From assembly GCA_017412645.1 (NCBI GenBank), contig JAFPWX010000001.1, positions 34,160 to 98,159 of the forward strand: a stretch of DNA of 64,000 bases, given 5' to 3'. This DNA comes from Bacteroidales bacterium (lineage in GTDB: Bacteria > Bacteroidota > Bacteroidia > Bacteroidales > UBA932). This document shows, piece after piece, positions 18,106 through 35,945 of this stretch. The notes under the pieces are model-generated. The model was not told the DNA's origin, searched no databases, and saw only the letters and a program-made list of their open reading frames with translations. Every line of letters starts with the position of its first letter. Position 1 is the stretch's first letter. Made by a program: the position numbers and the translations under genes.

Positions 18106-19071
18106 ATGAATAATCAACCAAGAATACTTGTTGTAGGGAGCTTCATGATGGATCTTGTGGCTCTCGCAGAAAGAGCTCCCGAACTGGGAGAAACTGTTGT
18201 TGGATCCGGTTTCAGAACCGCACCCGGCGGAAAGGGTGCCAACCAGGCCGTCCAGGCTGCCCGTCTTGGAGTCGAAACCCATATGGCAGGCTGCGTCGGA
18301 GACGACTCTTTCGGCCGGGAAATGGTCAAAGCTCTCAAAGATTCGGGGGTGGACACATCCCATGTCAAGATCAGCGGGGAGCATCCATCCGGGGTCGGGC
18401 ACATTGAAATCCAGTCCGGCGCTTCCGGTGTCCAGAACAGAATAATCGTGGTCCCTGGAGCAAACTACGATCTTGCACCCGCGGATCTCGTATGGCTCAA
18501 AGAAGGCATCAAGGCATACAATATCGTAATAATGCAGCTCGAGCTCAAGATGGAAACCATTGAGTATGTAGCACGAGTGGCGCACGACGCCGGAGTGCCG
18601 GTTATGCTCAATCCTGCTCCTGCCGCCCCTCTGTCCGACGAACTCCTGTCCTGCGTCACCTTCCTGTCTCCCAACGAAACCGAGGCTGCAATGCTTTCCG
18701 GAGTCAAAACAGATTCCGAAGGTCGCCTTTCAGAAGAGGCTCTCAAAGCCGCCAGCAAGGTTCTCATGAGTAAGGGCGTTCCCAATGTAATTATTACCCT
18801 TGGTGACAAGGGTGCGGCAATTTGCACCGCTGAAGGGGTTAAACACGTGCCATGCGTTAAGATGACAAATGTCGTGGATCCCACTGCGGCAGGCGATTCC
18901 TTTGTAGGTGCTTTCTGCGCAGGCTACGCTTCGGGCCTTTCAATCGAAGATTCGCTGAATCTGGCCGTTCATGCTTCCGCCATAACGGTATGCGGCTACG
19001 GCGCCATTCCCTCGCTCCCCACAAAGGATAAAGTTGAGAAACTCATGGTTGAAAGGAGGGCTGCAATATGA
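18106..19071 (+). CDS. Ribokinase-family (PfkB) sugar kinase, predicted D-arabinose/pentose kinase
   Basis: A 321-residue cytoplasmic kinase. It aligns along its length with E. coli RbsK: D16 (GSFMMDL), the GGKGANQ loop with G42, K43 and N46, the LNPAPA segment, TPNETEA-like SPNETEA, and the anion-hole/base motif DPTAAGDSF. Ribokinases phosphorylate O5 of a pentofuranose. One pocket position differs: Asn14 of RbsK is Met14 here, which may alter selectivity for the sugar. The gene is first in an operon with an arabinose-5-phosphate-isomerase-like protein (ATGA overlap) and a LacI regulator, next to a GH172/DUF4185 locus. I infer D-arabinose 5-kinase activity; plain ribokinase or fructokinase remain possible. 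Confidence 0.8.
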   Translation: MNNQPRILVVGSFMMDLVALAERAPELGETVVGSGFRTAPGGKGANQAVQAARLGVETHMAGCVGDDSFGREMVKALKDSGVDTSHVKISGEHPSGVGHIEIQSGASGVQNRIIVVPGANYDLAPADLVWLKEGIKAYNIVIMQLELKMETIEYVARVAHDAGVPVMLNPAPAAPLSDELLSCVTFLSPNETEAAMLSGVKTDSEGRLSEEALKAASKVLMSKGVPNVIITLGDKGAAICTAEGVKHVPCVKMTNVVDPTAAGDSFVGAFCAGYASGLSIEDSLNLAVHASAITVCGYGAIPSLPTKDKVEKLMVERRAAI

Positions 19072-19676
19072 TACAGGAAAAGAGTATAAAGGCCGTCGAG
19101 TATTTCCTTGATTCGGCAAAGAAGAGTTTCACCTCTTATATAAATAGTATTGATATCGCATCCTGCAGCAAGGCGGCGGAGCTGATCCTTGCCTCGCAGG
19201 CTGCTGGTGGAAGGCTTCATGTTACGGGCATAGGCAAGCCGGGGCATGTAGCCACCTATGCGGCATCGCTCCTGTCGTCTACAGGAAATCCGGCGACTTT
19301 CCTTCACGGAACGGAGGCGGTTCACGGGTCCTGCGGCCAGTTGGTAGCCGGAGACGTTGTAATCGCCATATCCAATTCCGGAGAAACTGCGGAACTGAAG
19401 GCAACAGTGAATGCGATTCACATGAACGGCTGCAAGGTGATTGCCGTAACCGGTAATCCGGAAAGCTGGCTTTCCAGGAACTCCGAATGCACCCTTCTTG
19501 CCGGCGTGAGTGAAGAGGGAGGTCCGCTGAACCGGGCTCCCCGCAACTCGGTAAATGCCGAAATGCTTATCCTCCAGGCCCTCAGTGTGATGCTACAGGT
19601 AGAGAAAGACTGGAATCCCGAGAAATACGTCAGGTGCCATCCGGGAGGTAAGCTTGGAGAAAGAGGTTTGGCCTAG
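19068..19676 (+). CDS. SIS-domain sugar isomerase, D-arabinose-5-phosphate isomerase type
   Basis: A 202-residue single SIS domain without the CBS pair found in E. coli KdsD/GutQ. The four catalytic residues described for KdsD (K59, E111, E152, H193) have counterparts at identical spacing: K57 (GIGKPGHV), E109 (SNSGETAEL), E150 (SEEGGPL) and H191 (CHPGGKLGE). This supports interconversion of D-arabinose 5-phosphate and D-ribulose 5-phosphate. Homologues usually serve Kdo synthesis; a short form of that kind is known in Bacteroides. Here it is coupled by ATGA overlap to a sugar kinase and followed by a LacI regulator. A catabolic role downstream of D-arabinose phosphorylation is therefore the better inference. 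A different phosphosugar substrate is possible. Confidence 0.8.
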   Translation: MIQEKSIKAVEYFLDSAKKSFTSYINSIDIASCSKAAELILASQAAGGRLHVTGIGKPGHVATYAASLLSSTGNPATFLHGTEAVHGSCGQLVAGDVVIAISNSGETAELKATVNAIHMNGCKVIAVTGNPESWLSRNSECTLLAGVSEEGGPLNRAPRNSVNAEMLILQALSVMLQVEKDWNPEKYVRCHPGGKLGERGLA

Positions 19677-19691
19677 TTACAATAACGGTTG

Positions 19692-20717
19692 ATGGACAAG
19701 AATAAGAAAAAAGCTTCGCTGAAGGATGTCGCCTCCTACGTAGGGGTTTCCACATCGCTGGTCTCCTTTGTGCTCAATGGCAAGGGAAGGCTTCATCGCG
19801 TAAGTGAGGAAACAATCGCCAAGATCAAGAAAGCGGCCGAAAAACTCAACTACCAGCCCAATTCTTTCGCGAAGAGTCTCAGGGAAGGAAAGAGCCGCGT
19901 GATTGGAGTTGTCCTGTCCGATATCTCCAACCCGTTCTTCTCCATGATTGCACGCTATCTGGAAGATGAGGCGGAGAAGTATGGGTATTCAATTCTGTTC
20001 GCGAGTTCCGACGAAAACCGTGACCGCGCGGAAAAACAGATAGCGCATCTCGTAAGCAGGGGAGCCGACGGCATCATTTTAGTGCCTTGTGAAAAGTCCG
20101 AAAAAACTGTGGAGGCGGTTCTGGAAACCGGGAAGCCCCTTATCCTGATAGACCGTTATTTCCCGACCATCCGCACCAACTATGTCTGCCTGAACAACAG
20201 GGAAGTAAGTCGTCTTGCCACAGAGCATCTCCTGACTCATGGTTTCAGCCATCCCGGCGTCATCGCATACGATACCACCCTGCAGCATATGCAGGACAGG
20301 GTCAACGGTTATAAGCAGGCCATGACAGAAGCTGGAAAAGCCGGTCTTATAAGCGAAAGCCGCGTCAAGGAAGCCAATCTTCACAACGCTATAAGCGGAT
20401 CCATCTCCAGAATGCTCGCCGAAGGTGTGGATTCTCTCCTTTTTGCAACCAATAACATCGCCACCGAGGCGCTCAAGGTAATTAAGGGCAAAGGCATACG
20501 GATTCCCGAAGATCTGGGAATCATAGGATTCGACGGAGGCAATGCTTTCGAACTGTTCCATGTCCCTGTCTCTTATATCCGTCAGCCCATCTCTCTGCTT
20601 GCCCAAAAGGCAGTGGAAATCATCATGGACGAAATTCTGATGGGGGAGAAAATGACCCATCAGGTAGAAGTCCAGGGGTCTCTCGTTATCACAGAATCAT
20701 CGATTAAGTCCTGTTAG
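19692..20717 (+). CDS. LacI-family transcriptional regulator
   Basis: A 341-residue repressor. The N-terminal helix-turn-helix (about residues 8-30: SLKDVASYVGVSTSLVSFVL) and hinge helix region (NYQPNSFAKSLR) precede a periplasmic-binding-protein-like effector domain. That domain runs from about residue 60, with IGVVLSDISNPFF, the GADGIILVP strand and the LGIIGFDGG segment. I prefer ATG 19692 over the adjacent TTG 19689. It lies in the operon with the sugar kinase and isomerase. Four matching 16-bp palindromes in the locus promoters are its likely targets, with a free or phosphorylated pentose as the likely effector. Confidence 0.92.
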   Translation: MDKNKKKASLKDVASYVGVSTSLVSFVLNGKGRLHRVSEETIAKIKKAAEKLNYQPNSFAKSLREGKSRVIGVVLSDISNPFFSMIARYLEDEAEKYGYSILFASSDENRDRAEKQIAHLVSRGADGIILVPCEKSEKTVEAVLETGKPLILIDRYFPTIRTNYVCLNNREVSRLATEHLLTHGFSHPGVIAYDTTLQHMQDRVNGYKQAMTEAGKAGLISESRVKEANLHNAISGSISRMLAEGVDSLLFATNNIATEALKVIKGKGIRIPEDLGIIGFDGGNAFELFHVPVSYIRQPISLLAQKAVEIIMDEILMGEKMTHQVEVQGSLVITESSIKSC

Positions 20718-20749: not shown

Positions 20750-20781
20750 TTTGCAAATGCTAAATTAATTTAGCACCTTTG
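20750..20781 (+). promoter_or_regulatory. GH172-operon promoter with perfect LacI-type operator
   Basis: TTTG (20750-20753), 20 bases, then CACCTTTG (20774-20781) resemble a Bacteroidales promoter with one mismatch at -7. Between them lies the perfect palindrome TGCTAAATTAATTTAGCA (20758-20775), whose 16-bp core is GCTAAATTAATTTAGC. It covers the spacer and touches the -7 box, as expected for a repressor site. Confidence 0.7.
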
Positions 20782-20808: not shown

Positions 20809-21969
20809 ATGAAAAAAAGACTCCTCCTTTCCGCAGCAGCCATGCTTATGGCGCTTACCGTTAGCTATGCCCAGAATTTCAATGGATTAGACATGAATCT
20901 GGGTAATCTCTCCAGGCTTTCAGATGCCAAAACCCGTTCCATCTCCCCGGAAAACTTCACCGGCGAAAAGGGCAAGGGCGGAATGGCCGAGCCGAATCTT
21001 CCCAATACGAGGAATGTAAACAACGCCTCGTGGGCTGCCAGGGATCTTGGAAAAACCTGGAAGGTGAATCCCTTTATCACCATCAATCCCGGTGAAACCA
21101 TCACCATAGCGGAGATGGAAGGCCCCGGCGCTATCCAGCATATCTGGATGACTCCCACAGGAGTGTGGCGTTGGACCATAATCCGCATCTACTGGGACGA
21201 TGAATCCACCCCGTCAGTCGAATGTCCTATCGCAGACTTTTTCTGCATGGGCTGGAACGAATATGCCCCGCTCGTATCGCTTCCCGTCTGCGTTAACCCC
21301 GGAAGCGCATTCAACTGCTACTGGCAGATGCCTTTCCGCAAGAAATGCAAGATCACGATGGAGAACGTGAACGACAGAGACGCCATGAATCTGTACTACC
21401 AGATCGATTACACCCTCACCGAGGTCCCGGAAGACGCGGCATATTTCCACGCCCAGTTCCGCCGTACTCCCTATAACGAGAGTTCCGATTTCACCCTGAT
21501 CGACGGTATCAAGGGCAAGGGCCACTATGTGGGAGTATATATCGCCCTTGGAGTTCACAACAATGGCTGGTGGGGTGAAGGCGAAATCAAGTTCTTCATC
21601 GACGGCGACAAGGACTATCCCACCATTTGCGGCACCGGCACCGAAGATTATTTCTGTGGTTCCTACAATTTCGACCGTGGCGGTCGCTTCACCGAGTACT
21701 GCACTCCATACGCCGGTCTCTGCCAGGTGATCAGGCCCGACGGAACCTATCGTTCCCAGGAACGTTTTGGTATGTACCGCTGGCATATAATGGATCCCAT
21801 CCGCTTCGAGAAGAACCTCAAGGTCACCCTTCAGGATCTTGGATGGAGGCACGATGGGCGTTATCTTGAGCAGCATTCGGATATTGCCGCCACTGTGTTC
21901 TGGTATCAGGCCGAGCCTCATGCCAAATTCCCCAAGTTCCCCACCTGGCGTGAACTCGAAGTCAACTAG
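20809..21969 (+). CDS. GH172 family (DUF2961) glycoside hydrolase, predicted exo-D-arabinofuranosidase
   Basis: A 386-residue exported protein (signal peptide to about SYAQ, residue 22). The DUF2961 pattern is clear: ETITIAEMEGPGAIQHIWMT, the strand IIRIYWDDESTPSVECPIADFF, then a jelly-roll with LPVCVNPG, GVYIALGVHNNGWWGEGEIKFFIDG and the family signature GTGTEDYFCGSYNF. Known members cleave alpha-D-fructofuranosides or alpha-D-arabinofuranosides. Its neighbours are DUF4185 proteins and an arabinose-5-phosphate-isomerase-like gene, which favours D-arabinofuranose. It lacks a lipobox, so it is probably periplasmic and trims imported oligosaccharides. It is first in a four-gene run with gaps of 2 bases or overlaps. 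Confidence 0.85.
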   Translation: MKKRLLLSAAAMLMALTVSYAQNFNGLDMNLGNLSRLSDAKTRSISPENFTGEKGKGGMAEPNLPNTRNVNNASWAARDLGKTWKVNPFITINPGETITIAEMEGPGAIQHIWMTPTGVWRWTIIRIYWDDESTPSVECPIADFFCMGWNEYAPLVSLPVCVNPGSAFNCYWQMPFRKKCKITMENVNDRDAMNLYYQIDYTLTEVPEDAAYFHAQFRRTPYNESSDFTLIDGIKGKGHYVGVYIALGVHNNGWWGEGEIKFFIDGDKDYPTICGTGTEDYFCGSYNFDRGGRFTEYCTPYAGLCQVIRPDGTYRSQERFGMYRWHIMDPIRFEKNLKVTLQDLGWRHDGRYLEQHSDIAATVFWYQAEPHAKFPKFPTWRELEVN

Positions 21970-21971: not shown

Positions 21972-23042
21972 ATGAAAAGGCTTTTACTGGCACTCCTGTG
22001 CCTCACTTTGTTTGGCACTGTGGCATCCGCCCAGTTCGTCATTGATGGGCAGCGTCTTCAGCCGCCCGTCGAGGACGACATCTGGGTGCGTCCTGCCGCC
22101 GATGTGCCTTCAATGGCAGTCTGGGGCTTTAAGGACGGTATCCGGGTCGGGATTAACCCTCCCGGCCGCCCGAGAGGCCTACTGTACATGCTTTGCCCAT
22201 ACCTTAAGGAATCCGCCGACCGCTGGTTCGACATTGTGAACTATGTGGCGATGGAGCCGGTAGATGCCATCACGCATCGTCGGGGGCTTTCGGAACTGGA
22301 GCATAGCGCTCTAGATGGAGTGCCGGGAAAGCGTTTTGTGAGCAGCGATACTCCCCAGAAGCCGTCTGTCTACGACAATCTTCATCCGGCCCGCGGCGTA
22401 GTGGCCGTTGAGGACGGAAAGAAAACCCTTACGGTGTGGGTGTTCTGCGAGAAGTTCGAAAATGGGGCAGACGTGTACGTTCGCCTTCGTTTCATAGAGG
22501 GAAAACCCTATGAGTTCGAGCTTCAGTCTTTCGCCACCGAGGAATCGGCTCCGCTGGATCAGTTCGTTTTGTCGGCCACAATGGGCAACAAGATGCGTCT
22601 CAGGGAGCTCTATGCCGCCAACGGAGTAAAGAAGCTGTCTACCGACATCTGGCCGGATTACAAGGAAAAGTGGTTCAGCCCGTATGACATCACTCCTCTG
22701 AAGGAAATGATACGCGACCGCAAGGGTGGAGCCTGGGTGCTTGCTCATCCTAACGAAACAGACTACTCCAACGTGGAGTTCGAAGAGGGTACCTCCAAGG
22801 GGTGGAAGTACAACGGTATCCCGGCCACCCAGTATTGGTATTCACCCCTCCCGCACCCCGAAATGGTTGTACATGTGAACGGACGCTATACATACTGGGC
22901 TATCTTCAAGAAGATTCCAGGCGGCATAGCCTACGAGAATTTCGAGCTTTTCGAGCCGTTCCGCCAGGGTGCCGTGTACTACTTCGGCATCGACCCTGCA
23001 AAACCGAAAGACATTATTAAACGGATAAATAAGATCAAATGA
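21972..23042 (+). CDS. Secreted protein of unknown function in the D-arabinan locus
   Basis: I do not recognise this 356-residue protein. It has a signal peptide (MKRLLLALLCLTLFGTVASAQ). The mature chain is beta-rich with many aromatic residues, and includes WGFKDGIRVGINPPGRPRGL, FIEGKPYEFELQSFATEES, and GWKYNGIPATQYWYSPLPHPEM. No lipobox and no obvious catalytic motif are visible. The all-beta, Trp/Tyr-rich character would fit a supersandwich fold (mutarotase-like) or a binding protein, but this is a guess. It starts 2 bases after the GH172 stop and overlaps the next gene by ATGA. It is thus locked into the operon and probably acts on the same glycan in the periplasm. Confidence 0.6.
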   Translation: MKRLLLALLCLTLFGTVASAQFVIDGQRLQPPVEDDIWVRPAADVPSMAVWGFKDGIRVGINPPGRPRGLLYMLCPYLKESADRWFDIVNYVAMEPVDAITHRRGLSELEHSALDGVPGKRFVSSDTPQKPSVYDNLHPARGVVAVEDGKKTLTVWVFCEKFENGADVYVRLRFIEGKPYEFELQSFATEESAPLDQFVLSATMGNKMRLRELYAANGVKKLSTDIWPDYKEKWFSPYDITPLKEMIRDRKGGAWVLAHPNETDYSNVEFEEGTSKGWKYNGIPATQYWYSPLPHPEMVVHVNGRYTYWAIFKKIPGGIAYENFELFEPFRQGAVYYFGIDPAKPKDIIKRINKIK

Positions 23043-24484
23043 AGCTATTAAAGCTATTATTCCCTCTTGCCTTTGCCGTACTTGTAGCATGGGCCTGCTC
23101 AAAGGAACCGGATGGGCCTGAAACCCCGCCCGAGGATCTTCTGATAGAGCCGGTGTCGCAGACTGTGAAGCCTGCCGACGGTAAACTCACAATCAGTATG
23201 ACCCTCTATGGCCTGGAGCAGACCAAGTATATGACCATCGAAAAGATCAACTCCGCGGGAACCCAGAGCGTGAATTATTATCCGCGGGTGCTTCAGAAGG
23301 ATTACACGTACAACTATACCATGCTCCCGACCGACGATGAGGAATTCACATTCTCTTTTACCCTTGTGGGCAACGATGGGTCCGTGAGCAATACGGCAAC
23401 AGCCACTGTGGACAATTCCAGGGCTGATGGGGAAGCCAAATACAGAACCCTTGCAATCTCTAATCTGAGGGTTATGTCCAGGGTTACCGGCAAGGAAGAC
23501 AACGGTCACGACGGTCTTCCGGCGGTAAAGTACACGGTAAATAACAACACGCACACCAAGTACAATGTGGGTGGAACCGATTTGGGTATCGTCTGGGAGA
23601 TTTCCCCGGGTTACTATGGCCTTTTCTTCGGCGATACATTCGGTTCCGATTTCAATCCCAACTTTAGCGCTCCGGGGCCTAATGGTGGCTCGTGGAGGAG
23701 TAATGTACTGCTGTTTTCAGAAGATACAGAGCTGGAAGACGGAATGAAGATTACCGGTGCTGCTCTAGATGCTGGGGGCAATGCCCGGCAGATAGTGTAC
23801 AGTGCTCATGTCACCAATGGCAATGGAGACTATACCTCCATTCCCACAGCTGCGGTTCATGCCAACGGGAAAGAATACGTGCATTACTTCAATATCAGAA
23901 CCTGGGACGGTTGGGTTACCAACTATTCCGGGATGTACCGTTCTTCGGATATGGGCGGCAACTGGGAAAAGGTTTCCGGAATCAGATGGGGAGGGGAGAG
24001 TTACTTTGGTCAGGTTGGCTTCTGTAACATAGGCGACGGATGGGTGTATGTGATAGGCACTCAGTCCGGACGAGATTCAAAACCGAAATTGGCGAGAGTT
24101 GCCGAAGCGAACATAGAGAAGCAATCCAAATATGAATTCTGGAACGGAGTTTCCTGGGTGGAAGGCAGTGAGTACGAGGCGGTGATTCTCTTTGATGATA
24201 AAGCTGGCGAACTGTCTTTCGAGTATCTGCCCGAATTCAAAAAATGGGTAATTCTCTACTTCAACGGCCCCCGTTACGAAATCACTATGCGCTATGCCGA
24301 CAAGGTAACCGGCCCGTGGAGCGACCCAATTACAGTCGCTTCAGGAAGGAATTATCCTCAGTTATACGGTTCCTTCATTCATCCACTTTCCAAGCAGGAG
24401 GGAGGTAAACTGTACTTTATAATGTCAATGTGGTTGCCCTACAACACATATCTTATGTGTGTAGATGTTAAAGGATACAGATAA
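23039..24484 (+). CDS. DUF4185 (GH183-type) lipoprotein, predicted endo-D-arabinanase, copy 1
   Basis: A 481-residue lipoprotein (lipid Cys20, MKLLKLLFPLAFAVLVAWAC). An Ig-like domain (about 35-130) precedes a five-bladed-propeller-type DUF4185 domain (about 140-480). The latter contains TGKEDNGHDGLP, VGGTDLGIVWEISPGYYGLFFGDTFG, GKEYVHYFNIRTW, and the closing SFIHPLSK ... YFIMSMW. DUF4185 proteins from a gut Dysgonomonas were shown to be endo-acting D-arabinanases (CAZy GH183, from memory). The lipid anchor suggests surface or outer-membrane location, where the polymer is cut before import. It overlaps the previous gene (ATGA) and the next (TAATG). Confidence 0.82.
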   Translation: MKLLKLLFPLAFAVLVAWACSKEPDGPETPPEDLLIEPVSQTVKPADGKLTISMTLYGLEQTKYMTIEKINSAGTQSVNYYPRVLQKDYTYNYTMLPTDDEEFTFSFTLVGNDGSVSNTATATVDNSRADGEAKYRTLAISNLRVMSRVTGKEDNGHDGLPAVKYTVNNNTHTKYNVGGTDLGIVWEISPGYYGLFFGDTFGSDFNPNFSAPGPNGGSWRSNVLLFSEDTELEDGMKITGAALDAGGNARQIVYSAHVTNGNGDYTSIPTAAVHANGKEYVHYFNIRTWDGWVTNYSGMYRSSDMGGNWEKVSGIRWGGESYFGQVGFCNIGDGWVYVIGTQSGRDSKPKLARVAEANIEKQSKYEFWNGVSWVEGSEYEAVILFDDKAGELSFEYLPEFKKWVILYFNGPRYEITMRYADKVTGPWSDPITVASGRNYPQLYGSFIHPLSKQEGGKLYFIMSMWLPYNTYLMCVDVKGYR

Positions 24485-25905: not shown

Positions 25906-25968
25906 TTAAATTGTTTTAGCTATTTTACAAAATAAATCTTATCTTTGCCATTAGCTAAAACGATTCAG
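25905..25968 (+). promoter_or_regulatory. susC-operon promoter flanked by two LacI-type operators
   Basis: The -7 box TATCTTTG (25940-25947) has only a weak -33 match (TTAG near 25916). Upstream operator GTTAAATTGTTTTAGC (25905-25920) covers the -33 region. Downstream operator GCTAAAACGATTCAGC (25953-25968) lies just past the predicted start of transcription. Their centres are 48 bp apart. Two operators could allow DNA looping or stepwise repression. Confidence 0.65.
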
Positions 25969-29000: not shown

Positions 29001-29076
29001 GGAATCCAACCACCTTGGAGCCAGTACCTATCCGACCCAGATGGCAATTACGCTTGGTGTAGATGTGGGATTCTAA
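26005..29076 (+). CDS. SusC/RagA-family TonB-dependent outer-membrane transporter
   Basis: A 1023-residue oligosaccharide importer. After a signal peptide (to about SAQ, residue 23) comes a carboxypeptidase-regulatory-like domain (about 28-110) with the SusC signature GVVKEAGTGEPIVAAGV. The plug follows (about 115-230): ALGGTVPGIISRQRSGEPG, the conserved LLIRGAGTW and VDGIERDI, and ASATAVYGMRGANGVILINTKKG. The rest is the 22-stranded barrel. It pairs with the SusD-like gene 19 bases downstream. Two LacI-type operators around its promoter tie its expression to the kinase-isomerase operon. The likely cargo, from context, is D-arabino-oligosaccharides. Confidence 0.95.
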   Translation: MSFRTRLFLLVLILVLPVGLSAQSRKSLTVSGVVKEAGTGEPIVAAGVMQKATNIGAITDLDGSYLIKVNDANGVLVVSAIGYKSIEVPINGRSTIDFVLESDSESLEDAVVIGYGTQKKATVTGALTVVNTELVGKAVTPTLANALGGTVPGIISRQRSGEPGYDGATLLIRGAGTWLNSNPLVLVDGIERDINLINNDEIESFSILKDASATAVYGMRGANGVILINTKKGSLGKPKVTFRSETSLLHGLRFPNYIEGWEFATLMNEACETGGVVLPWSDEEIETFRDGSDPYNYPSVNWTDLVLKKNAFQTINTISVSGGNEIVRYYVSAGFSSQSGLFKEDPTYDYRTNSLSQRYNFRSNVDVNVTKNFTLNLGLAEIVENRTYPGTPAADIFWSLKVVNPITYPVRNPDGSFGSSNTSYEKNSPYVLATNNGFSKQFRSTTQGTFGAKWDLGTVITPGLMIEGNFAYDHYYSMEATRRKQPELKKYLGPDPVTGEDRYTTIQDEGTMGYFIAYNVSNRAYYGDVRINYNRSFESHNVSALLMANLRDYSDLTAGNTTAQLPYRRQGFAGRVSYNYKQRYLIELNAGYNGSENFAPGHRYGFFPAVSAGWVPSEEPWWGIGFINHLKLRGSYGTVGNDALNAQRFFYMSTVNKTAGGYNFAFDQSGGGNVGGMSELRMGSPNASWEISHKTDIGIDMEMFDRKLRIGADWFYEHRTNILLERHSVPSTIGLAAGQLALSNIGIMDNTGFDANIEFTNTTSSGFYYQIRGNMTYAHNTVIEDDSAPALWSYQNTRGKSYGIPLGYVALGLFQSQEEIDSSPKQELGTYTVGDIKYKDINHDNVINAYDRVYLGYAREPEIMFGFGFTTAWRGVDFSVNFTGAANTTILLDAAGMWPFQLDYPGYNVYREYYDHRFIPGADNTNAKYPVVHNGTSSNNYQISSLYLHDASYIKLKTAELGYTIPKRASAKIGLERLRFFVNGNNLLCLDNLNGMVDPESNHLGASTYPTQMAITLGVDVGF

Positions 29077-29095
29077 AGAACAGGAGGAAACAAGT

Positions 29096-30943
29096 ATGAA
29101 AAAAATATTATACATAGTATTCGCAGCACTGGTGCTTGCATCGGCAGTTTCCTGTGAAAAGTTCCTGAATATGGCTCCGGACGAAAACCTTACTCTGGAC
29201 GACGTGTTCAAGAACCGCCTCAATACCAGGGCGTTCCTGGCAAACGCATACTCCTATATGCCATACCACGCAGATCAGAACTGGGACAACAACTTTACCG
29301 GTTCCTGCGATGAAGAGGAGATTGCATATGGCGCCCACTACACTCACGCCATGTCTAGTGGTGCATGGGCTCCGACCGACGGTAGTGTGTCTCCTATCTG
29401 GACATCCATGTACGAAGGCATACGTAAAGTCAACCTTGTGATAGAGAATGCGGATCGCTGCTCCGACGCTACGGCTGATGAAATCCGCTGGTGGAAGGGA
29501 GAAGCCTATTTCCTGCGTGCCTTCTATCATTTCCTGATATTCCGCGCTTATGGTCCCATTCCTATAGTGGACCACGTGGTGGACATTAACGAAGACATCG
29601 CCTCTATAGTGCGTGCTACCGCTGACGAGGTGGCGGCATTCATAGCTGCCGACTGCGATCGTGCAGCTGAATATCTCGTGGACAAAGACGAATGGCCTTC
29701 GCTCGACTATGCCCGTGCCACTCCGGTAGCAGCGCTTGCACTCAAGAGCAGAGTGCTCCTGTACGTGGCTTCGCCTCTTTACAACGGCAATCCGGTCTTC
29801 GCGGATCTCAAAGACCCGATCAGCGGCAAGAACCTTATTTCCCAGACATACGATCCTGAGAAATGGAAGAAAGCTGCCGATGCGGCAAAGGCATGTATCG
29901 ACGCTGCAGAAGCAATCGGCCACGGTCTTTACACTGCAGAACTTGCAACAGATCCTGTGAAGAACTATCAGAACATCTTCAATGTTAATTGGAACAAGGA
30001 AGTGCTCTGGGGCCGTAACAACGGAGCCGGGGACCACTGGCTCAACTGCTCCGATCCCACCTCCTTCGGATGCTACGCCATCTTCGATCCTACTCAGGAA
30101 ATGGTGGATGCGTATGAGATGGAAGACGGAAGCACCCCGATTACGGGCTATGCGGCCGACGGTATTACTCCCATAATCAATCCGGCTTCGGGATACACTG
30201 AGACAGGATTCACCACTAGCGGCGTGGAAGGCCGCTGGACGGCTAATGTCTCCAATATGTACGCACATCGCGAGCCCCGTTTCTATGCTTCCATCAATTT
30301 CGCAGGAGGTATCTGGAAGACTACACGTGCCAGTAACTGGACAGTTCCTCACGTGAATGAATTCTGGTACTACGGTATAGACGGTAAGAATAATGCCGGT
30401 TCCGACTACTGCAAGACGGGATACCTGATGAAGAAGCTTCATTATCCCACACGTGTTCCATGGCAGTCAACCCCGCTCCAGGTATGGATTTACTTCCGAC
30501 TGGGAGAGATTTATCTGAACTATGCAGAGGCTCTGAATGAGTATTCCGGCCCCGTGGCAGACGTCTATACTTATGTGGATGCCATACGTACACGTGCCGC
30601 TCTTCCCGGTCTTGCCGCTGGTCTGACGAAGGATCAGATGAGGGAAAGGATACACCACGAGCGTCGTATCGAACTGGCCTTTGAAACCCATCGCTGGTTC
30701 GATGTTCGCCGCTGGATGGAAGGTGAAAGCCAGAACAAGCCTATTCACTCGATGAATATCTGGGAGGGTACCAACCAGACTGATCCCGCCTTCTACAAGA
30801 GAATCGAGGTCGAGAAGCGCGTTTTTGAAACGCCCAAACACTATTTTTACCCAATCCCACAGAGTGAAGTGGACAAGAACGTCAAGCACTATCTGGTCCA
30901 GAATCTCGGATGGATAACGGCAACAGCCGGAGATGGAGAATAA
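29096..30943 (+). CDS. SusD/RagB-family nutrient-binding lipoprotein
   Basis: A 615-residue surface glycan-binding lipoprotein (MKKILYIVFAALVLASAVSC, lipid Cys20) that caps the SusC barrel. SusD hallmarks are FLNMAPDENLTLDDVFKN, EAYFLRAFYHFLIFRAYGPIPIV, and the C-terminal HERRIELAFETHRWFDVRRW with YFYPIPQSEVDKN. I chose ATG 29096, where the signal peptide begins; a plain AGGAGG (29082-29087) precedes it by 8 bases, which is rare in this window. The nearest fit is the large SusD type with an insert around residues 340-430. Confidence 0.94.
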   Translation: MKKILYIVFAALVLASAVSCEKFLNMAPDENLTLDDVFKNRLNTRAFLANAYSYMPYHADQNWDNNFTGSCDEEEIAYGAHYTHAMSSGAWAPTDGSVSPIWTSMYEGIRKVNLVIENADRCSDATADEIRWWKGEAYFLRAFYHFLIFRAYGPIPIVDHVVDINEDIASIVRATADEVAAFIAADCDRAAEYLVDKDEWPSLDYARATPVAALALKSRVLLYVASPLYNGNPVFADLKDPISGKNLISQTYDPEKWKKAADAAKACIDAAEAIGHGLYTAELATDPVKNYQNIFNVNWNKEVLWGRNNGAGDHWLNCSDPTSFGCYAIFDPTQEMVDAYEMEDGSTPITGYAADGITPIINPASGYTETGFTTSGVEGRWTANVSNMYAHREPRFYASINFAGGIWKTTRASNWTVPHVNEFWYYGIDGKNNAGSDYCKTGYLMKKLHYPTRVPWQSTPLQVWIYFRLGEIYLNYAEALNEYSGPVADVYTYVDAIRTRAALPGLAAGLTKDQMRERIHHERRIELAFETHRWFDVRRWMEGESQNKPIHSMNIWEGTNQTDPAFYKRIEVEKRVFETPKHYFYPIPQSEVDKNVKHYLVQNLGWITATAGDGE

Positions 30944-30944
30944 A

Positions 30945-32156
30945 ATGAAACAAACAATATTATGCATTGCCCTTGGGGCCGCCTTGCTCGGCGGCCTTCA
31001 GGGCTGTAACAGGACTTACATTATGGGAACTTACGGTTATGATGCGGCCTATTTCGCAAAGCACGGAATCAAGACTGTTGAACTTGTGGACGGCCGTTCG
31101 AAAGTGATGGTAATCCCTGCGTGGCAGGGAAGGGTACAAACCTCAACCACAGACGGAAACGAAGGAACGAGCTATGGATGGACAAACTACCGTTTTATCG
31201 ACGCGGGTGAGGTAAGTCCCCAGTTCAATCCCTTCGGAGGAGAGGAACGATTCTGGATCGGCCCGGAAGGCGGTCCGTTCTCCTGGTATTTCAAAAAGGG
31301 AGAAGAGCAGGTATATGCTAATTGGAAAGTTCCTTCATATATCGATACCGATGCCTACGACGTAGTGGAAAAGAACTCCTCAAAAGTTGTTCTTGCCAAG
31401 GAATTCGATGCCGAGAATGCCTCTGGTAACCAGTTCCGCATCGGAGTTCGCAGAACTGTTGCCCTGGTTGGTGGCGAAGAGCTCAAGGCCCTTCTTGGTG
31501 TGGAAATCCCGTCGAACCTCAAGGCCCTTGCCTACAAAACAGAGAATACTCTCATAAACAAGGGCGAGGCTGCCTGGACCAAGACTACCGGACTTCCTTC
31601 GGTTTGGCTTCTCGGATCCTTCAACCCCACCCCCACAACCACGGTTTTTATCCCCTGCAATAAGGACTTTGCCGGTAAGAGAATCAACGACGAGTACTTT
31701 GGAAAGGTTCCGGCCGACCGTCTGATCTATGACGATGGAATGTTCTATTTCAAGATTGACGGCGAATACCGCTCGAAGATTGGCCTTCCCGCCGGCAGTG
31801 CAAAGGACATCTGCGGCAGCTACGATAGCGCCGCCGGTGTGCTCAATATCCTCAAGTACACTGTTCCAGAGGGAGACGTAGATTATGTGAACGGCCAGTG
31901 GGGCCCGCAGGAAAATCCCTTCGGAGGAGATGTAATCAACTCCTACAATGACGGTCCCACCGAGACAGGTTTCGTCCAGGGTCCGTTCTATGAGATTGAG
32001 ACTTCTTCCCCAGGAGCAGCTCTTGCTCCAGGAGAGAGCCTTACCCATGTTCAGTACACAATCCACATCCAGGGCAATCCCGAACAGCTTTCTGCTATAG
32101 CAGAGGCCGTATTCGGAGTAAAGCTCGACAAGATTGCAGGCATGTTCGCTAAATAG
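30945..32156 (+). CDS. DUF6786-like (mutarotase-fold) lipoprotein
   Basis: A 403-residue lipoprotein (lipid Cys21, LLGGLQGC). It shows the DUF6786 features I recall: FNPFGGEERFWIGPEGGPFSWYFKKG near residue 95, and a C-terminal part with GQWGPQENPFGGDVINSYNDGP and SLTHVQYTIHIQG. These resemble galactose-mutarotase-like supersandwich proteins, which may equilibrate sugar anomers or bind sugars; the activity of this family is not established. It begins one base after the SusD stop (TAAAATG) and lies 8 bases before the permease gene. A role in anomer conversion of released D-arabinose is possible but speculative. Confidence 0.65.
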   Translation: MKQTILCIALGAALLGGLQGCNRTYIMGTYGYDAAYFAKHGIKTVELVDGRSKVMVIPAWQGRVQTSTTDGNEGTSYGWTNYRFIDAGEVSPQFNPFGGEERFWIGPEGGPFSWYFKKGEEQVYANWKVPSYIDTDAYDVVEKNSSKVVLAKEFDAENASGNQFRIGVRRTVALVGGEELKALLGVEIPSNLKALAYKTENTLINKGEAAWTKTTGLPSVWLLGSFNPTPTTTVFIPCNKDFAGKRINDEYFGKVPADRLIYDDGMFYFKIDGEYRSKIGLPAGSAKDICGSYDSAAGVLNILKYTVPEGDVDYVNGQWGPQENPFGGDVINSYNDGPTETGFVQGPFYEIETSSPGAALAPGESLTHVQYTIHIQGNPEQLSAIAEAVFGVKLDKIAGMFAK

Positions 32157-32164
32157 TAAGGACT

Positions 32165-33607
32165 ATGGCAGAAAAATCAAGACTTGTCCCCAAAGGCATC
32201 GTGTGGCCGTTCATATTGCTCACGCTGCTCTTCTTCGCATGGGCTGTGCCGAACAACCTCACCGACACCATGCTGGCCGCGTTTAAGCGCATCATGAGCC
32301 TGTCCGACTCCAAGACTGCGTGGATTCAGGTGGTTTGCTATCTTCTCGGATACGGCTGCTTCGCAATCCCTGGAGCAATCTTTATCAAGAGGTACAGCTA
32401 TAAAAGCGGAGTTCTGCTTGGCCTCGGGCTTTATTCTCTCGGCACCTTCCTGTTCTATCCGGCATCGAAGGTAGCTGTAGTGAACAATTCCTTCGGGTAT
32501 ATCATGTTCCTCTTTGCGATACTGGTGCTGTTCGCTGGTCTTTCAATCCTGGAAACCTCCACGAACTCCTATGTGCTCGCGCTCGGTCCATCTGACACGG
32601 CAACCCGCAGGCTTAATTTCGCCCAGTCCTTCAATCCCTTCGGTGCAATCACTGGAGTTGTGATTTCCCAGATTTTCATCCTTTCCCAGCTGAATACCAT
32701 GACGGCCTCGCAGAGGGCTAACCTCACAGATGCCGACCTTCAGGCCATCCAGATGGGTGAACTGAATGCCGTTACCACAACTTATATGATTCTGGGAGCG
32801 GTGATGCTTGTGATACTCCTCGCCATCTTCCTCACCAAGATGCCGAATCTTAAGGAAGAAGGCGGCCCGATGGATCTCAAGGGATCATTCAAACGCCTCA
32901 CCCATAACAAGAATTATGTTTGGGGTGTGGTAGCACAGTTCTTCGATATCGGCGCTCAGATAGCGGTATGGTCCTATACTATACGTTATGCGATGCACAA
33001 TCTCCGTTTCGACAGCGTCATCGCTTCTCTCGGTCCGGACGCATCTTCCGATACCATTATCTCCGCTCTTCGCGGAATGGAGCCGCTTGCGGCAGGATTC
33101 TATAACGTGTGTGATGCCGTAGGCCTCGACGTGCTTCTGCCTCGAACCGCTGAACAGGCCGGTGCCACCTATTATATCATGTCGCTGGTACTCTTTGTAA
33201 TCATGAGATTCGTGTGCACCTGGCTCATGAAATGGATTAATCCCCGCAAGCTCCTTGCAACCATGGCTGGCCTGGGCGTGCTCTTCTGCCTTGGAACAGT
33301 GTTCGGAAAGGGTTTCTTCGGAGTGTACTGCCTGATGTGCATCAGCGGATGTCTCTCACTCATGTTCCCCACTATTTATGGATTGGGAGTCAACGGACTT
33401 GGCGAAGACACCAAGCTGGGCGGTTCCGGTATGGTTATGGCTATAGCCGGTGCGAGCGTGCTCACCCAGATCGAGGGCATCGTATCCGACCAGTCCGGCA
33501 ACATAGCAATCGCATACATCGTTCCTGCAATTGCTTTTGCAGTAATACTTTACTATGCGGCAATTTTCTGTCGTAAACAGGAAAAGAAACAATCACTAAA
33601 TATCTAA
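32165..33607 (+). CDS. MFS permease, FucP type (predicted D-arabinose/L-fucose:H+ symporter)
   Basis: A 480-residue inner-membrane transporter with about 12 helices. It shares the FucP core: FFAWAVPNNLTDTML (D34, equivalent to the proton-coupling Asp46 of E. coli FucP), LSILETSTNSY (E130, equivalent to Glu135), and RRLNFAQSFNPFGAI. A loop insert of about 60 residues lies around 280-345. E. coli FucP imports L-fucose and also D-arabinose, which has the same ring stereochemistry without the methyl group. In this locus, with no fucose genes, D-arabinose import to the cytoplasmic kinase is the natural inference. Confidence 0.85.
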   Translation: MAEKSRLVPKGIVWPFILLTLLFFAWAVPNNLTDTMLAAFKRIMSLSDSKTAWIQVVCYLLGYGCFAIPGAIFIKRYSYKSGVLLGLGLYSLGTFLFYPASKVAVVNNSFGYIMFLFAILVLFAGLSILETSTNSYVLALGPSDTATRRLNFAQSFNPFGAITGVVISQIFILSQLNTMTASQRANLTDADLQAIQMGELNAVTTTYMILGAVMLVILLAIFLTKMPNLKEEGGPMDLKGSFKRLTHNKNYVWGVVAQFFDIGAQIAVWSYTIRYAMHNLRFDSVIASLGPDASSDTIISALRGMEPLAAGFYNVCDAVGLDVLLPRTAEQAGATYYIMSLVLFVIMRFVCTWLMKWINPRKLLATMAGLGVLFCLGTVFGKGFFGVYCLMCISGCLSLMFPTIYGLGVNGLGEDTKLGGSGMVMAIAGASVLTQIEGIVSDQSGNIAIAYIVPAIAFAVILYYAAIFCRKQEKKQSLNI

Positions 33608-33644
33608 ACAATTACTACTTTTTTATTAATCAACACTAACAACA

Positions 33645-35945
33645 ATGAAAGCAAAAGTTTTGTTAATCATTGCGGCAATCGCAATCCCGATGGCCTCTTG
33701 TAAGAAGCCGGCTGAAGACACTCCGACCGGCCCCGACTACCAGGAGCTCACCTTTACTGCGAATGCTGCTAGCGTTGAAGGCTTGAATCTGAGCTTCAGC
33801 GTCGGTGACAAAGTCTCCATCTTCGATGGTAAGGCCAATCAGAAGTTTACTGCGACCACGGCCACCTCGATCACGGGAACTGCTAATGCAAAGGCTGAGG
33901 CTTTTGCCGCCCTCTATCCCTACAACGCGGAGTATAAACGCGCGTCAGGTAAAGTATCTGTGACTATCCCTTCAGCTCAGAACCCTGAAGCAGGAAAAGT
34001 TGCCGCTAATGCCAACTATCAGGTTGCCTATGTCACATCTGCAAAGGACGCACTGGACTTCGCCTTTATGCCGGCTCTGCTTAAGTTGAATGTCGCGACG
34101 GAAAAGACCATTGTTTCCGTAACCATTACGGCCGACGGCAATGAGGCACTTACCGGCACCTGCAACCTTGAGCTTTCCGCCACACCCAAATGCGAGAAAC
34201 TCGGAGAAGGCGCAAGCAAGGTTACGATTGCCAATGCCAATATCTCTGGTGCCTATTATGCGGCTGTTATTCCTGGAAACGTATCCGGTTTCACCGTTGC
34301 ATTCACCGCTGCAGATGACTATCATGCGGAAGTGAAGGTTGACGGTGCCGAGCTTAAGAGCGGCGTTGTCGCAGACCTCGGAACTTTCAGCGAACTTAAT
34401 TGGGTGGAACCCGTAAACCCCAACCCCACTGATGTGGTAGGTGCTGTAATCGTGAAGGCTTCTTTCGAAGCTGCAGATTTCAACCTTATCGGTGACGGCG
34501 GATTCGAAGATTTCCCGAGGGACGGATGGAAATGGGATAATCCCAAGAATGTGGAGTTTACGCTGATTCAGGGACGTAACTCCGAGAAGGCTCTCCGTAT
34601 GGTAAGAACCATAGATGACGGCATGACCAACCTTTGCCAGGGTGTCGTATATACGAACTTGGTGGCGGAAGGTGACGTAAGGTGGATTATGGAATTCGAT
34701 GCACGCGTGTCAGAAAACACCAATGTTGACTTCTATTCCGGATTTGGATTCTATGACGACTTAGGCGTCTGGTTCAAGGAAGTCAACGGAAGGGCGGATA
34801 ATCCTAATCCCGTTGAAGAGAATGGAAGAAAATTCTTCAATGACGGACAGTGGCATCACTATGTGCTTGATGATACCAACTATCCAACCCAGGCATGGGG
34901 ATTCGTTCACGTTGGCATGTGGGGTGCAAATCCCGAAGCTGATTCTCACTGGTCTGAGTACGACAACATAGTTGTTTATCCCAAGGGGATGGATATCAAT
35001 GGCATTTCAACAGCTCCCAAATCTGCAACTGTCCTCGGAGCCATTACCAATGCCACTTACGACCAGGTCGACGGACTTGGACGTGTTGTCGCTTGGATGG
35101 ATACGGAAGGAAAGGTTAAACTCGCTTTCTCTGATGTTGTCATAAACGGAACCAATGTTGCGACGGCAGTGGCAGAGACCGAATCCGCCGATCCTTCATC
35201 TATCGAGATTAAAAAGTTCTACAAGAGCGAGGGCACCTTTACGGAGATTCTCCCCCTGGACGAAGGTGAAATTGCCGTTGTGCCGGATGACGTATTCATC
35301 CAGGACGGCAAGACCTACCTGCACTATTATGGTATGACTTTCTTCAATCCTGAATTCACTCTCAACTGGCGTACAGACAAATCCGGCTTCGCTGTTTCCG
35401 AAGACAATGGCAAGACCTGGACTGCAGCCCCCAAGACTTGGGCACCAAGTGCATGGGCAGCCAACAACGATGGCAAATTCGCAGGTGCTTCGTTCGTGAA
35501 TCACGACGGTTACACCTATATGATCGGTTCGCATGCCGGCCGTGACAACTGGCTGTGGGGTAAGTCTTATGCCGCACGCGTTGCCGATGGAAAGGACATT
35601 ACCGATCCTAATGCATATCAGTACTGGACGAATCCCGGATGGGTTGACGGCGCAGAACAAGGAGAATGGTCAATAGCATTCAATAAGCACATCCTTATGG
35701 GAGACCGAGGAACCTATGATCTGATTTGGAATCCGAAGTTTGAAGTTTACCAGCTGTTCTACCGTGCAGATGCAGCACAGGGCATCGTGTATCGCGACTC
35801 CAAGGGTCCTGATGCAGACGGCAGGTGGTACTGGTCCGGTGCCAAACTCCTCACCAAGGATGAAGATACCGGTGTTCTTGGTCACGTCTCCGTGCTCAAG
35901 GTCGAAGAAGACGGCTCTGTGATCTTCGTAGGCTCTAAGATTTAA
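33645..35945 (+). CDS. Fusion lipoprotein: fimbrillin-like + carbohydrate-binding-like + DUF4185-like domains
   Basis: A 766-residue lipoprotein (MKAKVLLIIAAIAIPMASC, lipid Cys19). Residues about 30-255 look like a fimbrillin/Mfa-like domain (FSVGDKVSIFDGKANQKF, FAALYPYNAEY, YQVAYVTSAKDALDFAFMPALLKL). Residues about 275-445 look like a CBM4/9-type jelly-roll starting NLIGDGGFEDF and ending DSHWSEYDNIVVYP. Residues about 470-766 resemble the propeller of the two DUF4185 proteins: GKTYLHYYGMTFF, FAVSEDNGKTW, YTYMIGSHAGRDN...LWGKSYAARV (split), and NAYQYWTNPGWVDG. It follows the permease by 37 bases. It is probably a surface enzyme or binding protein held away from the membrane by the fimbrillin-like part. 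Confidence 0.65.
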   Translation: MKAKVLLIIAAIAIPMASCKKPAEDTPTGPDYQELTFTANAASVEGLNLSFSVGDKVSIFDGKANQKFTATTATSITGTANAKAEAFAALYPYNAEYKRASGKVSVTIPSAQNPEAGKVAANANYQVAYVTSAKDALDFAFMPALLKLNVATEKTIVSVTITADGNEALTGTCNLELSATPKCEKLGEGASKVTIANANISGAYYAAVIPGNVSGFTVAFTAADDYHAEVKVDGAELKSGVVADLGTFSELNWVEPVNPNPTDVVGAVIVKASFEAADFNLIGDGGFEDFPRDGWKWDNPKNVEFTLIQGRNSEKALRMVRTIDDGMTNLCQGVVYTNLVAEGDVRWIMEFDARVSENTNVDFYSGFGFYDDLGVWFKEVNGRADNPNPVEENGRKFFNDGQWHHYVLDDTNYPTQAWGFVHVGMWGANPEADSHWSEYDNIVVYPKGMDINGISTAPKSATVLGAITNATYDQVDGLGRVVAWMDTEGKVKLAFSDVVINGTNVATAVAETESADPSSIEIKKFYKSEGTFTEILPLDEGEIAVVPDDVFIQDGKTYLHYYGMTFFNPEFTLNWRTDKSGFAVSEDNGKTWTAAPKTWAPSAWAANNDGKFAGASFVNHDGYTYMIGSHAGRDNWLWGKSYAARVADGKDITDPNAYQYWTNPGWVDGAEQGEWSIAFNKHILMGDRGTYDLIWNPKFEVYQLFYRADAAQGIVYRDSKGPDADGRWYWSGAKLLTKDEDTGVLGHVSVLKVEEDGSVIFVGSKI

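What the first reader, a model, noticed from the sequence alone, without database searches (positions are those of the whole stretch)
18106..35945. Predicted D-arabinan utilisation locus with a kinase-isomerase route for D-arabinose
Seen: GH172 (DUF2961), two DUF4185 lipoproteins plus a DUF4185-like fusion, SusC/SusD, a FucP-type permease, a ribokinase-family kinase, an arabinose-5-phosphate-isomerase-type SIS protein and a LacI regulator, all in one run. Known: DUF2961 and DUF4185 (GH183) proteins cleave D-arabinan, the arabinogalactan core of mycobacterial walls; FucP also carries D-arabinose. Inferred: polymer is cut at the surface, imported, trimmed to D-arabinose, phosphorylated at O5, and isomerised to D-ribulose 5-phosphate for the pentose phosphate pathway. 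This bypasses the usual fucose-type enzymes (isomerase, ribulokinase, aldolase). I am not aware of this catabolic pairing being described.
Basis: partly seen in the sequence, partly recalled or inferred. Interest (0 to 1): 0.9.

Follow-up and report, generated by a model that had tools for sequence, protein, structure and literature searches.

The report
Kinase-first D-arabinose route in arabinan locus
An uncultured bacterium carries a gene set that appears to digest D-arabinan, a sugar polymer of mycobacterial cell walls, and to use the released D-arabinose by phosphorylating it first and isomerising it afterwards, where close relatives keep a fucose-type isomerase in the same gene cluster.

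Summary
In detail: every protein named is there, and the locus probably runs on to about 48.8 kb. GH172 and two GH183 proteins are closest to proven D-arabinan enzymes and keep the residues that exclude fructose (GH172) and catalyse (GH183). The transporter is FucP.

The kinase-isomerase reading gains four supports. (1) In four relatives the kinase-SIS pair sits between SusD and DUF6786, the slot that holds fucose isomerase in five other versions of the locus; of 15 GH183 genomes 7 have the pair, 6 FucI, none both. (2) All 13 kinases carry Gly at the site of the published A98G change that raised E. coli ribokinase kcat on D-arabinose 15-fold; the genome's ordinary ribokinase keeps Ala98. (3) An operator-like palindrome stands before kinase, GH172 and SusC. 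(4) The genome has no FucI match and no KDO-8-P synthase over cut-off, so the SIS is unlikely to serve KDO synthesis.

In four other genomes the same pair follows a DHDPS-family lyase and a symporter, which may mean KDO breakdown to pyruvate and D-arabinose. No enzyme was assayed. My searches of open-licence papers found no description of the route.

The parts
18059..18074 (.). operator-like palindrome (GCTAAA-N4-TTTAGC, 2 mismatches), 32 bp before the kinase start
18106..19071 (+). ribokinase-family kinase, predicted D-arabinose 5-kinase; Gly at the E. coli A98 site, Met at the N14 site
19068..19676 (+). single-domain SIS protein, predicted D-arabinose-5-phosphate isomerase; overlaps the kinase by 4 bp
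19689..20717 (+). LacI-family regulator, predicted regulator of the locus
20759..20774 (.). perfect operator-like palindrome, 35 bp before GH172
20809..21969 (+). GH172 (DUF2961), predicted exo-alpha-D-arabinofuranosidase; Asn287 at the ExoMA1 Asn253 position
21972..23042 (+). secreted protein without Pfam match or credible PDB relative
23039..24484 (+). GH183 (DUF4185) protein, predicted endo-D-arabinanase; Asp199 at the EndoMA1 Asp51 position; lipobox seen by eye
24484..25905 (+). second GH183 protein, 52% identical to the first; Asp194 in the FGDTFG motif; lipobox seen by eye
25905..25920 (.). operator-like palindrome (1 mismatch), 85 bp before SusC
25954..25969 (.). operator-like palindrome (1 mismatch), 36 bp before SusC
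26005..29076 (+). SusC/RagA TonB-dependent outer-membrane transporter
29063..30943 (+). SusD/RagB glycan-binding protein
30933..32156 (+). DUF6786 protein, function unknown, present in kinase-SIS and FucI versions
32165..33607 (+). FucP-type sugar:proton symporter, predicted D-arabinose importer
33645..35945 (+). protein with a C-terminal DUF4185 domain that lacks the FGDTFG motif
36172..37857 (+). CotH protein, probable downstream extension of the locus
37877..39823 (+). GH97, probable downstream extension
39925..42045 (+). BACON + DUF4886 protein, possible downstream extension
42015..44435 (+). GH2, possible downstream extension
44507..47626 (+). GH38 alpha-mannosidase family, also beside FucI-type loci L024 and L025
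47633..48766 (+). BNR-repeat protein, also beside FucI-type loci L024, L025 and L064

Best explanation
This is a D-arabinan utilisation locus of an uncultured Bacteroidales species in which the fucose-isomerase/ribulokinase branch seen in sister loci is replaced by a kinase-first branch. Surface GH183 proteins cut D-arabinan, SusC/SusD import oligosaccharides, periplasmic GH172 trims them to D-arabinose, FucP brings it in, the ribokinase-like kinase makes D-arabinose 5-phosphate, the SIS protein makes D-ribulose 5-phosphate, and Rpe feeds it into the pentose phosphate pathway. A LacI regulator probably controls the kinase, GH172 and SusC promoters together. Shown by sequence: family membership, specificity residues, gene order, absence of a FucI match, shared promoter motif. 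Inferred: localisation, transport, both enzyme activities, regulation.
For: GH172/GH183 identity and residues. FucP over cut-off. Slot replacement: SusD-[kin-SIS]-DUF6786 in L054-L057, 4 genomes; SusD-[FucI]-DUF6786 in L064, L067, L069, L071 and L027; L071 (G783) is otherwise close to the window's locus (GH172 91%, SusC 75%, MFS 82%, LacI 66%; it lacks the 21972-23042 gene). GH183 genomes at E<=1e-40: of 15, 7 pair, 6 FucI, 2 neither, 0 both; pair genomes with FucI 0 of 12 vs 118 of 388. The two genes are adjacent at 13 of 13 loci where both are seen (the SIS gene is cut by the contig end in L058) and take three positions in the PUL. Kinase clade 100/100; Gly98 in 13 of 13, against 2 of 17 other ribokinase-type rows, both of which also lack Asp16; A98G raised E. 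coli kcat on D-arabinose 15-fold (PMC9604405, abstract and passages). The own genome keeps a separate ribokinase with N14 and A98. The SIS protein keeps the Lys, Glu, His motifs of KdsD. No FucI match and no KDO-8-P synthase over cut-off (best 33.9 vs 314 bits) in a genome of 96.4% estimated completeness; Rpe present. Operator-like motif.
Against: No assay. A98G alone left E. coli ribokinase with KM 310 mM for D-arabinose, so Gly98 is not sufficient; Met at position 14 occurs in 4 of the 17 other rows and in PDB chain 5byc, so it says little. The 13 kinases are one clade, so their residues count as one event. Five of the 12 pair-bearing genomes have no GH183 at E<=1e-40, so the pair is not specific to D-arabinan. 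Avoidance of FucI by pair genomes is p=0.02 without correction for relatedness or genome completeness. API equilibrium favours A5P, Keq [Ru5P]/[A5P] 0.48-0.5 (PMC11591822 passage). No GH116 (exo-beta-D-arabinofuranosidase family) among the 22 window proteins scanned. The operator pattern was derived from these same promoters; by count alone 7 of 100 shuffles reach 4 matches, and no site was found near the kinase in L049, L051 or L058.
Confidence: 0.8

Rival explanations
1. Fructan or difructose locus: GH172 acts as alpha-D-fructofuranosidase, the kinase is a fructokinase, the SIS protein a 6-phospho-3-hexuloisomerase-like enzyme.
For: GH172 includes alphaFFase1 (162.3 bits), and the SIS protein has a weak HxlB match (36.6 bits vs cut-off 160).
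Against: Asn287 at the position said to block fructofuranose in ExoMA1; two GH183 proteins close to an endo-D-arabinanase; the kinase is over the ribokinase cut-off while the fructokinase model gives 79.7 vs 450; API-type models give 114-130 bits against 36.6 for HxlB.
Confidence: 0.03
2. The SIS protein is the cell's housekeeping arabinose-5-phosphate isomerase for KDO synthesis and sits here by chance; the kinase serves ribose.
For: It is the only KpsF/GutQ-like SIS protein found in the genome (the other two SIS matches share one 378-aa frame), and the kinase is over the ribokinase cut-off.
Against: No KDO-8-P synthase over cut-off; only 15 of 400 genus genomes have any relative at E<=1e-10; phylum relatives found at E<=1e-30 lie in 318-400-aa frames at 36-43% identity, while the window's is 202 aa and 57.5% identical to a PTS-linked clostridial protein; a separate canonical ribokinase exists; kinase and SIS genes are adjacent wherever both are seen.
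Confidence: 0.04
3. The pair is a general salvage module for D-arabinose or A5P from several sources, and its place in this locus is recent and not essential for growth on D-arabinan.
For: LacI-DHDPS lyase-SSF symporter-kinase-SIS in 4 genomes without GH183 at E<=1e-40; two further contexts, L049 and L051; variable position in the PUL.
Against: In four PULs it occupies the FucI slot; in the window and L050 its promoter shares the motif with GH172 and SusC; the genome has no FucI match.
Confidence: 0.1
4. The locus degrades another D-arabinose-containing glycan with the same kinase-first chemistry, not mycobacterial arabinogalactan (compatible with the best explanation, so the odds overlap).
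For: GH38, GH97 and GH2 downstream; D-Araf also occurs on a Pseudomonas pilin (title in the reference list of PMC10115798).
Against: Nothing here separates the sources of D-arabinan.
Confidence: 0.35

Closest known systems
Dysgonomonas gadei PUL42 (PMC10115798, abstract and passages)
   Same: GH172 and paired GH183 enzymes in a Bacteroidota PUL for D-arabinan
   Different: its most abundant carbohydrate enzyme on D-arabinan was a predicted fucose isomerase; the window has a kinase-SIS pair and its genome no FucI match
FucI-type version of the same locus in the same genus (G783/L071; also G596, G528, G467)
   Same: in G783: LacI, GH172, two GH183, SusC, SusD, DUF6786, FucP in the same order
   Different: FucI instead of kinase-SIS, no 21972-23042 homologue in G783; FGGY kinase after FucP in L064, L067, L069 and L027 (L071 ends within FucP)
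Microbacterium arabinogalactanolyticum D-arabinan cluster (PMC10509167, passages)
   Same: GH183, GH172 and a putative isomerase and kinase leading to D-ribulose 5-phosphate
   Different: ABC transporter, GH116, exo-enzymes without signal sequence; type and order of isomerase and kinase not given in the passages read
KdsD/GutQ/KpsF and single-domain phosphosugar isomerases (PDB 5uqi, 3etn, 2xhz)
   Same: SIS domain and active-site motifs
   Different: catabolic direction predicted here; no CBS domains; nearest relatives found outside the genus are PTS-linked proteins on plasmids of Bacillota
Ribokinase RbsK
   Same: fold and contacts D16, G42, K43, N46, E143, D255
   Different: N14 is Met and A98 is Gly

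Membership tests
GH172 | DUF2961 model over cut-off | tested here: met
   323.8 vs 27 bits
GH172 | alpha-D-Araf rather than alpha-D-Fruf preference (Asn at ExoMA1 253) | tested here: met
   Asn287 aligned; role from a PMC10509167 passage; that 8ic8 is ExoMA1 is inferred from name and numbering
GH172 | hydrolysis of alpha-D-arabinofuranosides | not testable with these tools
   needs an assay
GH183 | DUF4185 model over cut-off | tested here: met
   294.3 and 280.3 vs 39.5 bits
GH183 | catalytic Asp (EndoMA1 D51) | tested here: met
   Asp199 and Asp194 in FGDTFG; the fused protein at 33645-35945 lacks this motif
D-arabinose-5-phosphate isomerase | SIS domain with the KdsD active-site motifs | tested here: met
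   residue roles recalled
D-arabinose-5-phosphate isomerase | full-length KdsD/GutQ model | tested here: not met
   114.1 bits vs 481 (GutQ) and 505 (KdsD); that single-domain proteins such as 3etn and 5uqi are APIs is recalled
D-arabinose-5-phosphate isomerase | A5P-Ru5P activity | not testable with these tools
   needs an assay
ribokinase RbsK | TIGR02152 over cut-off | tested here: met
   310.8 vs 299.65
ribokinase RbsK | ribose-contact Asn14 and lid residue Ala98 | tested here: not met
   Met and Gly; Asn14 varies among other ribokinase-type rows too (10 of 17 have Asn)
FucI/ribulokinase D-arabinose route | fucose isomerase in the genome | tested here: not met
   0 matches to PF07881; genome 96.4% complete by estimate
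Bacteroidota PUL | adjacent SusC and SusD | tested here: met

The most novel reading that the evidence does not exclude
The kinase-SIS pair is a mobile cassette for a new D-arabinose pathway (D-arabinose to A5P to Ru5P) that has replaced fucose isomerase in D-arabinan loci and, beside a DHDPS-family lyase and a sodium symporter, forms a KDO-catabolic pathway (KDO to pyruvate plus D-arabinose, then to Ru5P), so that both mycobacterial arabinan and KDO from LPS or plants enter central metabolism through D-arabinose 5-phosphate, which I know mainly as a biosynthetic intermediate.
Probability: 0.45. Interest if true: 0.78.

Novelty: new variant of a known kind. Interest (0 to 1): 0.66.

Why it matters
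The D-arabinose catabolism described in the papers I saw runs through fucose enzymes, or through oxidative (non-phosphorylative) routes (abstract listing). A dedicated kinase plus A5P isomerase would be a second phosphorylative route, would give D-arabinose 5-phosphate a catabolic role, and would supply a natural counterpart of the D-arabinose-active ribokinase that engineers have made from the E. coli enzyme. The FucI-for-pair swap in sister genomes makes the claim directly testable, and the second gene context offers candidate genes for KDO breakdown.

Tried and rejected
Fructan/hexuloisomerase reading: rejected on the GH172 Asn and model scores. KDO-synthesis reading of the SIS protein: rejected on the lack of a KDO-8-P synthase over cut-off and its rarity in the genus. 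SIS survey of the order at E<=1e-50 found only the window genome, 1 of 393. Phylum survey: 62 of 296 at E<=1e-30; apart from the window's own, all are 36-43% identical and in 318-400-aa frames; weaker, shorter relatives were below that threshold and not seen. Structure predictions of the unassigned protein (21972-23042) and of DUF6786 were never accepted, so their folds are untested; profiles of both found no credible PDB relative. Rfam found nothing at gathering scores in 15000-50000. In the kinase residue table I used 10 of the 30 plasmid rows listed (of 353 records); I left out of the count two other PfkB paralogs of the genome (L017, L018) and one duplicate of the own ribokinase (L078). 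A first reading of the ribokinase paralog used wrong frames and was corrected. The KDO reading of the DHDPS operon is a guess from chemistry and has evidence against it: the lyase's best solved relative is named dihydrodipicolinate synthase (4xky, 279.6 bits), and the Clostridioides neighbour is over the dapA cut-off (240.1 vs 206.15), though the L048 lyase is below it (185.1).

Full report
What is there. The window lies in a 1.80-Mb, 26-contig assembly of 96.4% estimated completeness. The closest named records (72-75% on GH183a) are Bacteroidales or Bacteroidia MAGs, two of them titled as buffalo rumen and goat omasum; the genus holds more than 400 of the genomes on hand. From 18106 to 35945 the + strand encodes, in order, a ribokinase-family kinase, a single-domain SIS protein (4-bp overlap with the kinase), a LacI regulator, GH172, an unassigned secreted protein, two GH183 proteins (52% identical), SusC, SusD, DUF6786, FucP and a protein with a C-terminal DUF4185 domain. 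Signal peptides and lipoboxes were read by eye. CotH, GH97, DUF4886/BACON, GH2, GH38 and BNR genes continue on the same strand to 48766; CotH, GH38 and BNR relatives also follow the locus in L024 and L025, and a GH97 relative lies in L067 and L069.

Target polymer. GH172 matches the exo-alpha-D-arabinofuranosidase 8ic8 at 383.8 bits and the fructosidase alphaFFase1 at 162.3 bits. PMC10509167 (passages) says Asn253 of ExoMA1 blocks alpha-D-fructofuranose where alphaFFase1 has Gly; residue 253 of 8ic8 is an Asn, and the window has Asn287 there. GH183a matches the endo-alpha-D-arabinanase 8hhv at 190.1 bits; residue 51, mutated as D51N in the EndoMA1 study, is an Asp aligned with Asp199, and GH183b has Asp194 in the same motif. 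That 8ic8 and 8hhv are ExoMA1 and EndoMA1 is inferred from names and numbering. The fused DUF4185 protein lacks the FGDTFG motif and may be non-catalytic. These are family-level inferences; nothing was assayed. PMC10115798 (abstract and passages) established GH172 and GH183 activities from Dysgonomonas gadei PUL42.

The FucI swap. In D. gadei a predicted fucose isomerase of PUL42 was the most abundant carbohydrate enzyme on D-arabinan. The window genome has no match to the fucose isomerase N1 domain. In a sample of 400 genomes of the genus, 12 carry a close relative (79% identity or more, own genome included) of the SIS protein and 3 more a distant one (29-33%); 15 carry GH183 at E<=1e-40; 118 carry FucI at E<=1e-20. 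Of the 15 GH183 genomes 7 have the SIS gene, 6 have FucI, 2 have neither (G515, G627, whose GH183s are about 30-32% identical to the window's), none has both. SIS and GH183 are associated (7 of 12 against 8 of 388, p=1.5e-8), SIS and FucI avoid each other (0 of 12 against 118 of 388, p=0.022), and GH183 genomes have one or the other more often than the rest (13 of 15 against 117 of 385, p=1.6e-5); FucI alone is not enriched in GH183 genomes (6 of 15, p=0.39; all). These tests ignore relatedness and incomplete genomes.

Gene order is more telling. In L054-L057 (four genomes) the kinase-SIS pair lies between SusD and DUF6786; in L064, L067, L069, L071 and L027 FucI lies there. L071 (G783) is otherwise close to the window's locus: LacI 66%, GH172 91%, GH183a 71%, GH183b 65%, SusC 75%, SusD 76%, DUF6786 74%, MFS 82% identical, in the same order, but without a homologue of 21972-23042. 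An FGGY kinase follows FucP in L064, L067 (=L025), L069 (=L024) and L027, and also in Bacteroides oleiciplenus (L023), whose fetched stretch begins within FucP and shows no FucI; the L024 kinase is over a ribulokinase cut-off (690.1 vs 428 bits). In G494 FucI and GH183 are on different contigs. The pair stands before LacI in the window and L050, after SusD in four genomes, and after CotH in L058, where the SIS gene is cut by the contig end. In all 13 loci where both genes are seen they are adjacent; L074 holds only a SIS fragment at a contig start.

The kinase. It is over the ribokinase cut-off, but the genome has another ribokinase (362.6 bits) that is 41% identical to it. PMC9604405 (abstract and passages) lists the E. 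coli ribose contacts as Asn14, Asp16, Gly42, Lys43, Asn46, Glu143 and Asp255, argues that Ala98 clashes with the 2'-OH of arabinose, and shows that A98G raises kcat on D-arabinose 15-fold, lowers KM 1.5-fold and about halves ribose kcat. All 13 pair kinases have Gly at position 98 and Met, Val or Ile at position 14 while keeping the other contacts; they form one clade with 100/100 support. Among 17 other ribokinase-type rows (E. coli, the own paralog, five phylum relatives, ten plasmid records) 15 have Ala98 and two Gly; those two also lack Asp16. Position 14 in these rows is Asn in 10, Met in 4, Ala in 2, Ser in 1, so only position 98 is telling. The two best PDB matches (8cqx, 6znx) differ in the printed alignment at this site, Gly against Ala, and the Gly chain scores slightly higher (194.8 vs 192.2 bits). 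PDB chain 5byc (human ribokinase, as I recall) has Met at the Asn14 site and Ala at 98. In PMC6452873 (passages) mutations at Asn14 of RbsK appeared in selection on 2-deoxyribose, and a model prediction of rbsK for D-arabinose growth was not borne out: the evolved strains used fucose enzymes. Against over-reading: E. coli A98G still has KM 310 mM. Human ribokinase was used to make A5P from D-arabinose in PMC11591822 (passages).

The SIS protein. Its best solved relatives are named phosphosugar isomerases or arabinose 5-phosphate isomerase (5uqi, 3etn, 2xhz). The Lys, Glu and His motifs of KdsD are conserved (catalytic roles recalled). In the phylum sample, relatives at E<=1e-30 (62 of 296 genomes, own included) apart from the own are 36-43% identical and lie in frames of 318-400 aa, whereas the window's protein is 57.5% identical to a PTS-linked SIS protein of a Clostridioides plasmid and 50.5% to one of Enterococcus. 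KDO-8-P synthase has no match over cut-off in the own genome (best 33.9 bits against 314), so KDO synthesis is an unlikely job.

Regulation. A 17-mer blended from two promoter stretches matches before the kinase (1 mismatch) and before SusC (2 mismatches) and nowhere else in the window at up to 3 mismatches; none of 100 shuffles had 2 matches. The palindrome GCTAAA-N4-TTTAGC with up to two mismatches has 4 matches in 64 kb, all of them 32-85 bp before kinase, GH172 or SusC. By number alone this is weak (7 of 100 shuffles reach 4) and both patterns came from these promoters; but the motif recurs before kinase, GH172 and SusC in L050, before GH172 and/or SusC in L054-L057 and L071, before SusC in L067 and L069, and near LacI or the lyase in L047, L052 and L053 (with three mismatches in L048, where some gene starts in relatives were estimated). 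No site was found near the kinase in L049, L051 or L058.

A second context. In four genomes without GH183 at E<=1e-40 (L047, L048, L052, L053) the order is LacI, DHDPS-family lyase, SSF symporter, kinase, SIS. NAL enzymes of the same superfamily make KDO from pyruvate plus D-arabinose, at about 1-1.5% of their main activity (PMC4016182 passages). KDO is the natural acid I can name whose cleavage would feed D-arabinose to this pair. The Bacillota relatives also sit beside a DHDPS-family gene, with PTS genes and no annotated sugar kinase in the stretch, which would fit phosphorylated KDO giving A5P directly. Against this, the best solved relative of the L048 lyase is named dihydrodipicolinate synthase (4xky) and the Clostridioides protein is over the dapA cut-off, while the L048 and Enterococcus proteins are below it (185.1 and 204.9 vs 206.15). 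This part is inference. Two further contexts (L049 with a NAGLU gene, L051 with an FG-GAP/esterase protein) are unexplained.

Literature. Ten searches of open-licence PMC papers showed no description of a ribokinase plus A5P isomerase route for D-arabinose breakdown in their listings; subscription papers are mostly not held, and the paper on the Clostridium tetani A5P isomerase that I wanted was not. PMC10509167 mentions a putative isomerase and kinase in an actinobacterial locus (passages; type and order not stated). PMC9947464 (passages) ran KdsD from A5P towards Ru5P in an engineered pathway, so the direction is feasible.

Verdict. It is a new variant of a known kind of locus with a probably undescribed pair of catabolic steps.

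Noticed in passing
L047:3476-6796, L048:12242-15598, L052:10433-13741, L053:764-4063: LacI - DHDPS-family lyase - SSF symporter - kinase - SIS operons in four genomes without GH183 at E<=1e-40: candidate KDO-catabolism genes.
   Followed up: partly
L010:7337-11227 and L011:7732-11148: Clostridioides and Enterococcus plasmid operons with PTS genes, a SIS protein (57.5% and 50.5% to the window's), a DHDPS-family protein and a KDPG-type aldolase; substrate unknown.
   Followed up: partly
genome G000 and genus sample: No KDO-8-P synthase over cut-off in the own genome, and 385 of 400 genus genomes have no relative of the SIS protein at E<=1e-10: the genus may make an envelope without KDO.
   Followed up: no
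window 36172-48766: CotH, GH97, GH2, GH38 and BNR genes probably extend the locus; GH38 could point to mannose-bearing lipoarabinomannan.
   Followed up: partly
window 21972-23042 and 30933-32156: Two secreted families (one without Pfam match, one DUF6786) recur in these loci (the first is missing in L071) and have no credible PDB relative; either could be the missing exo-beta-D-arabinofuranosidase.
   Followed up: partly
window 33645-35945: DUF4185 domain without the FGDTFG motif at the end of a longer protein; possibly a binding protein.
   Followed up: no
L066 and L070 (G515, G627): A divergent GH183/GH172 locus (about 27-32% identity) in two genomes with neither a close SIS relative nor a FucI match; perhaps another substrate.
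   Followed up: no
L049:458-9733: Kinase-SIS pair downstream of a NAGLU gene, three proteins without Pfam match and a SASA esterase: a third unexplained context.
   Followed up: no
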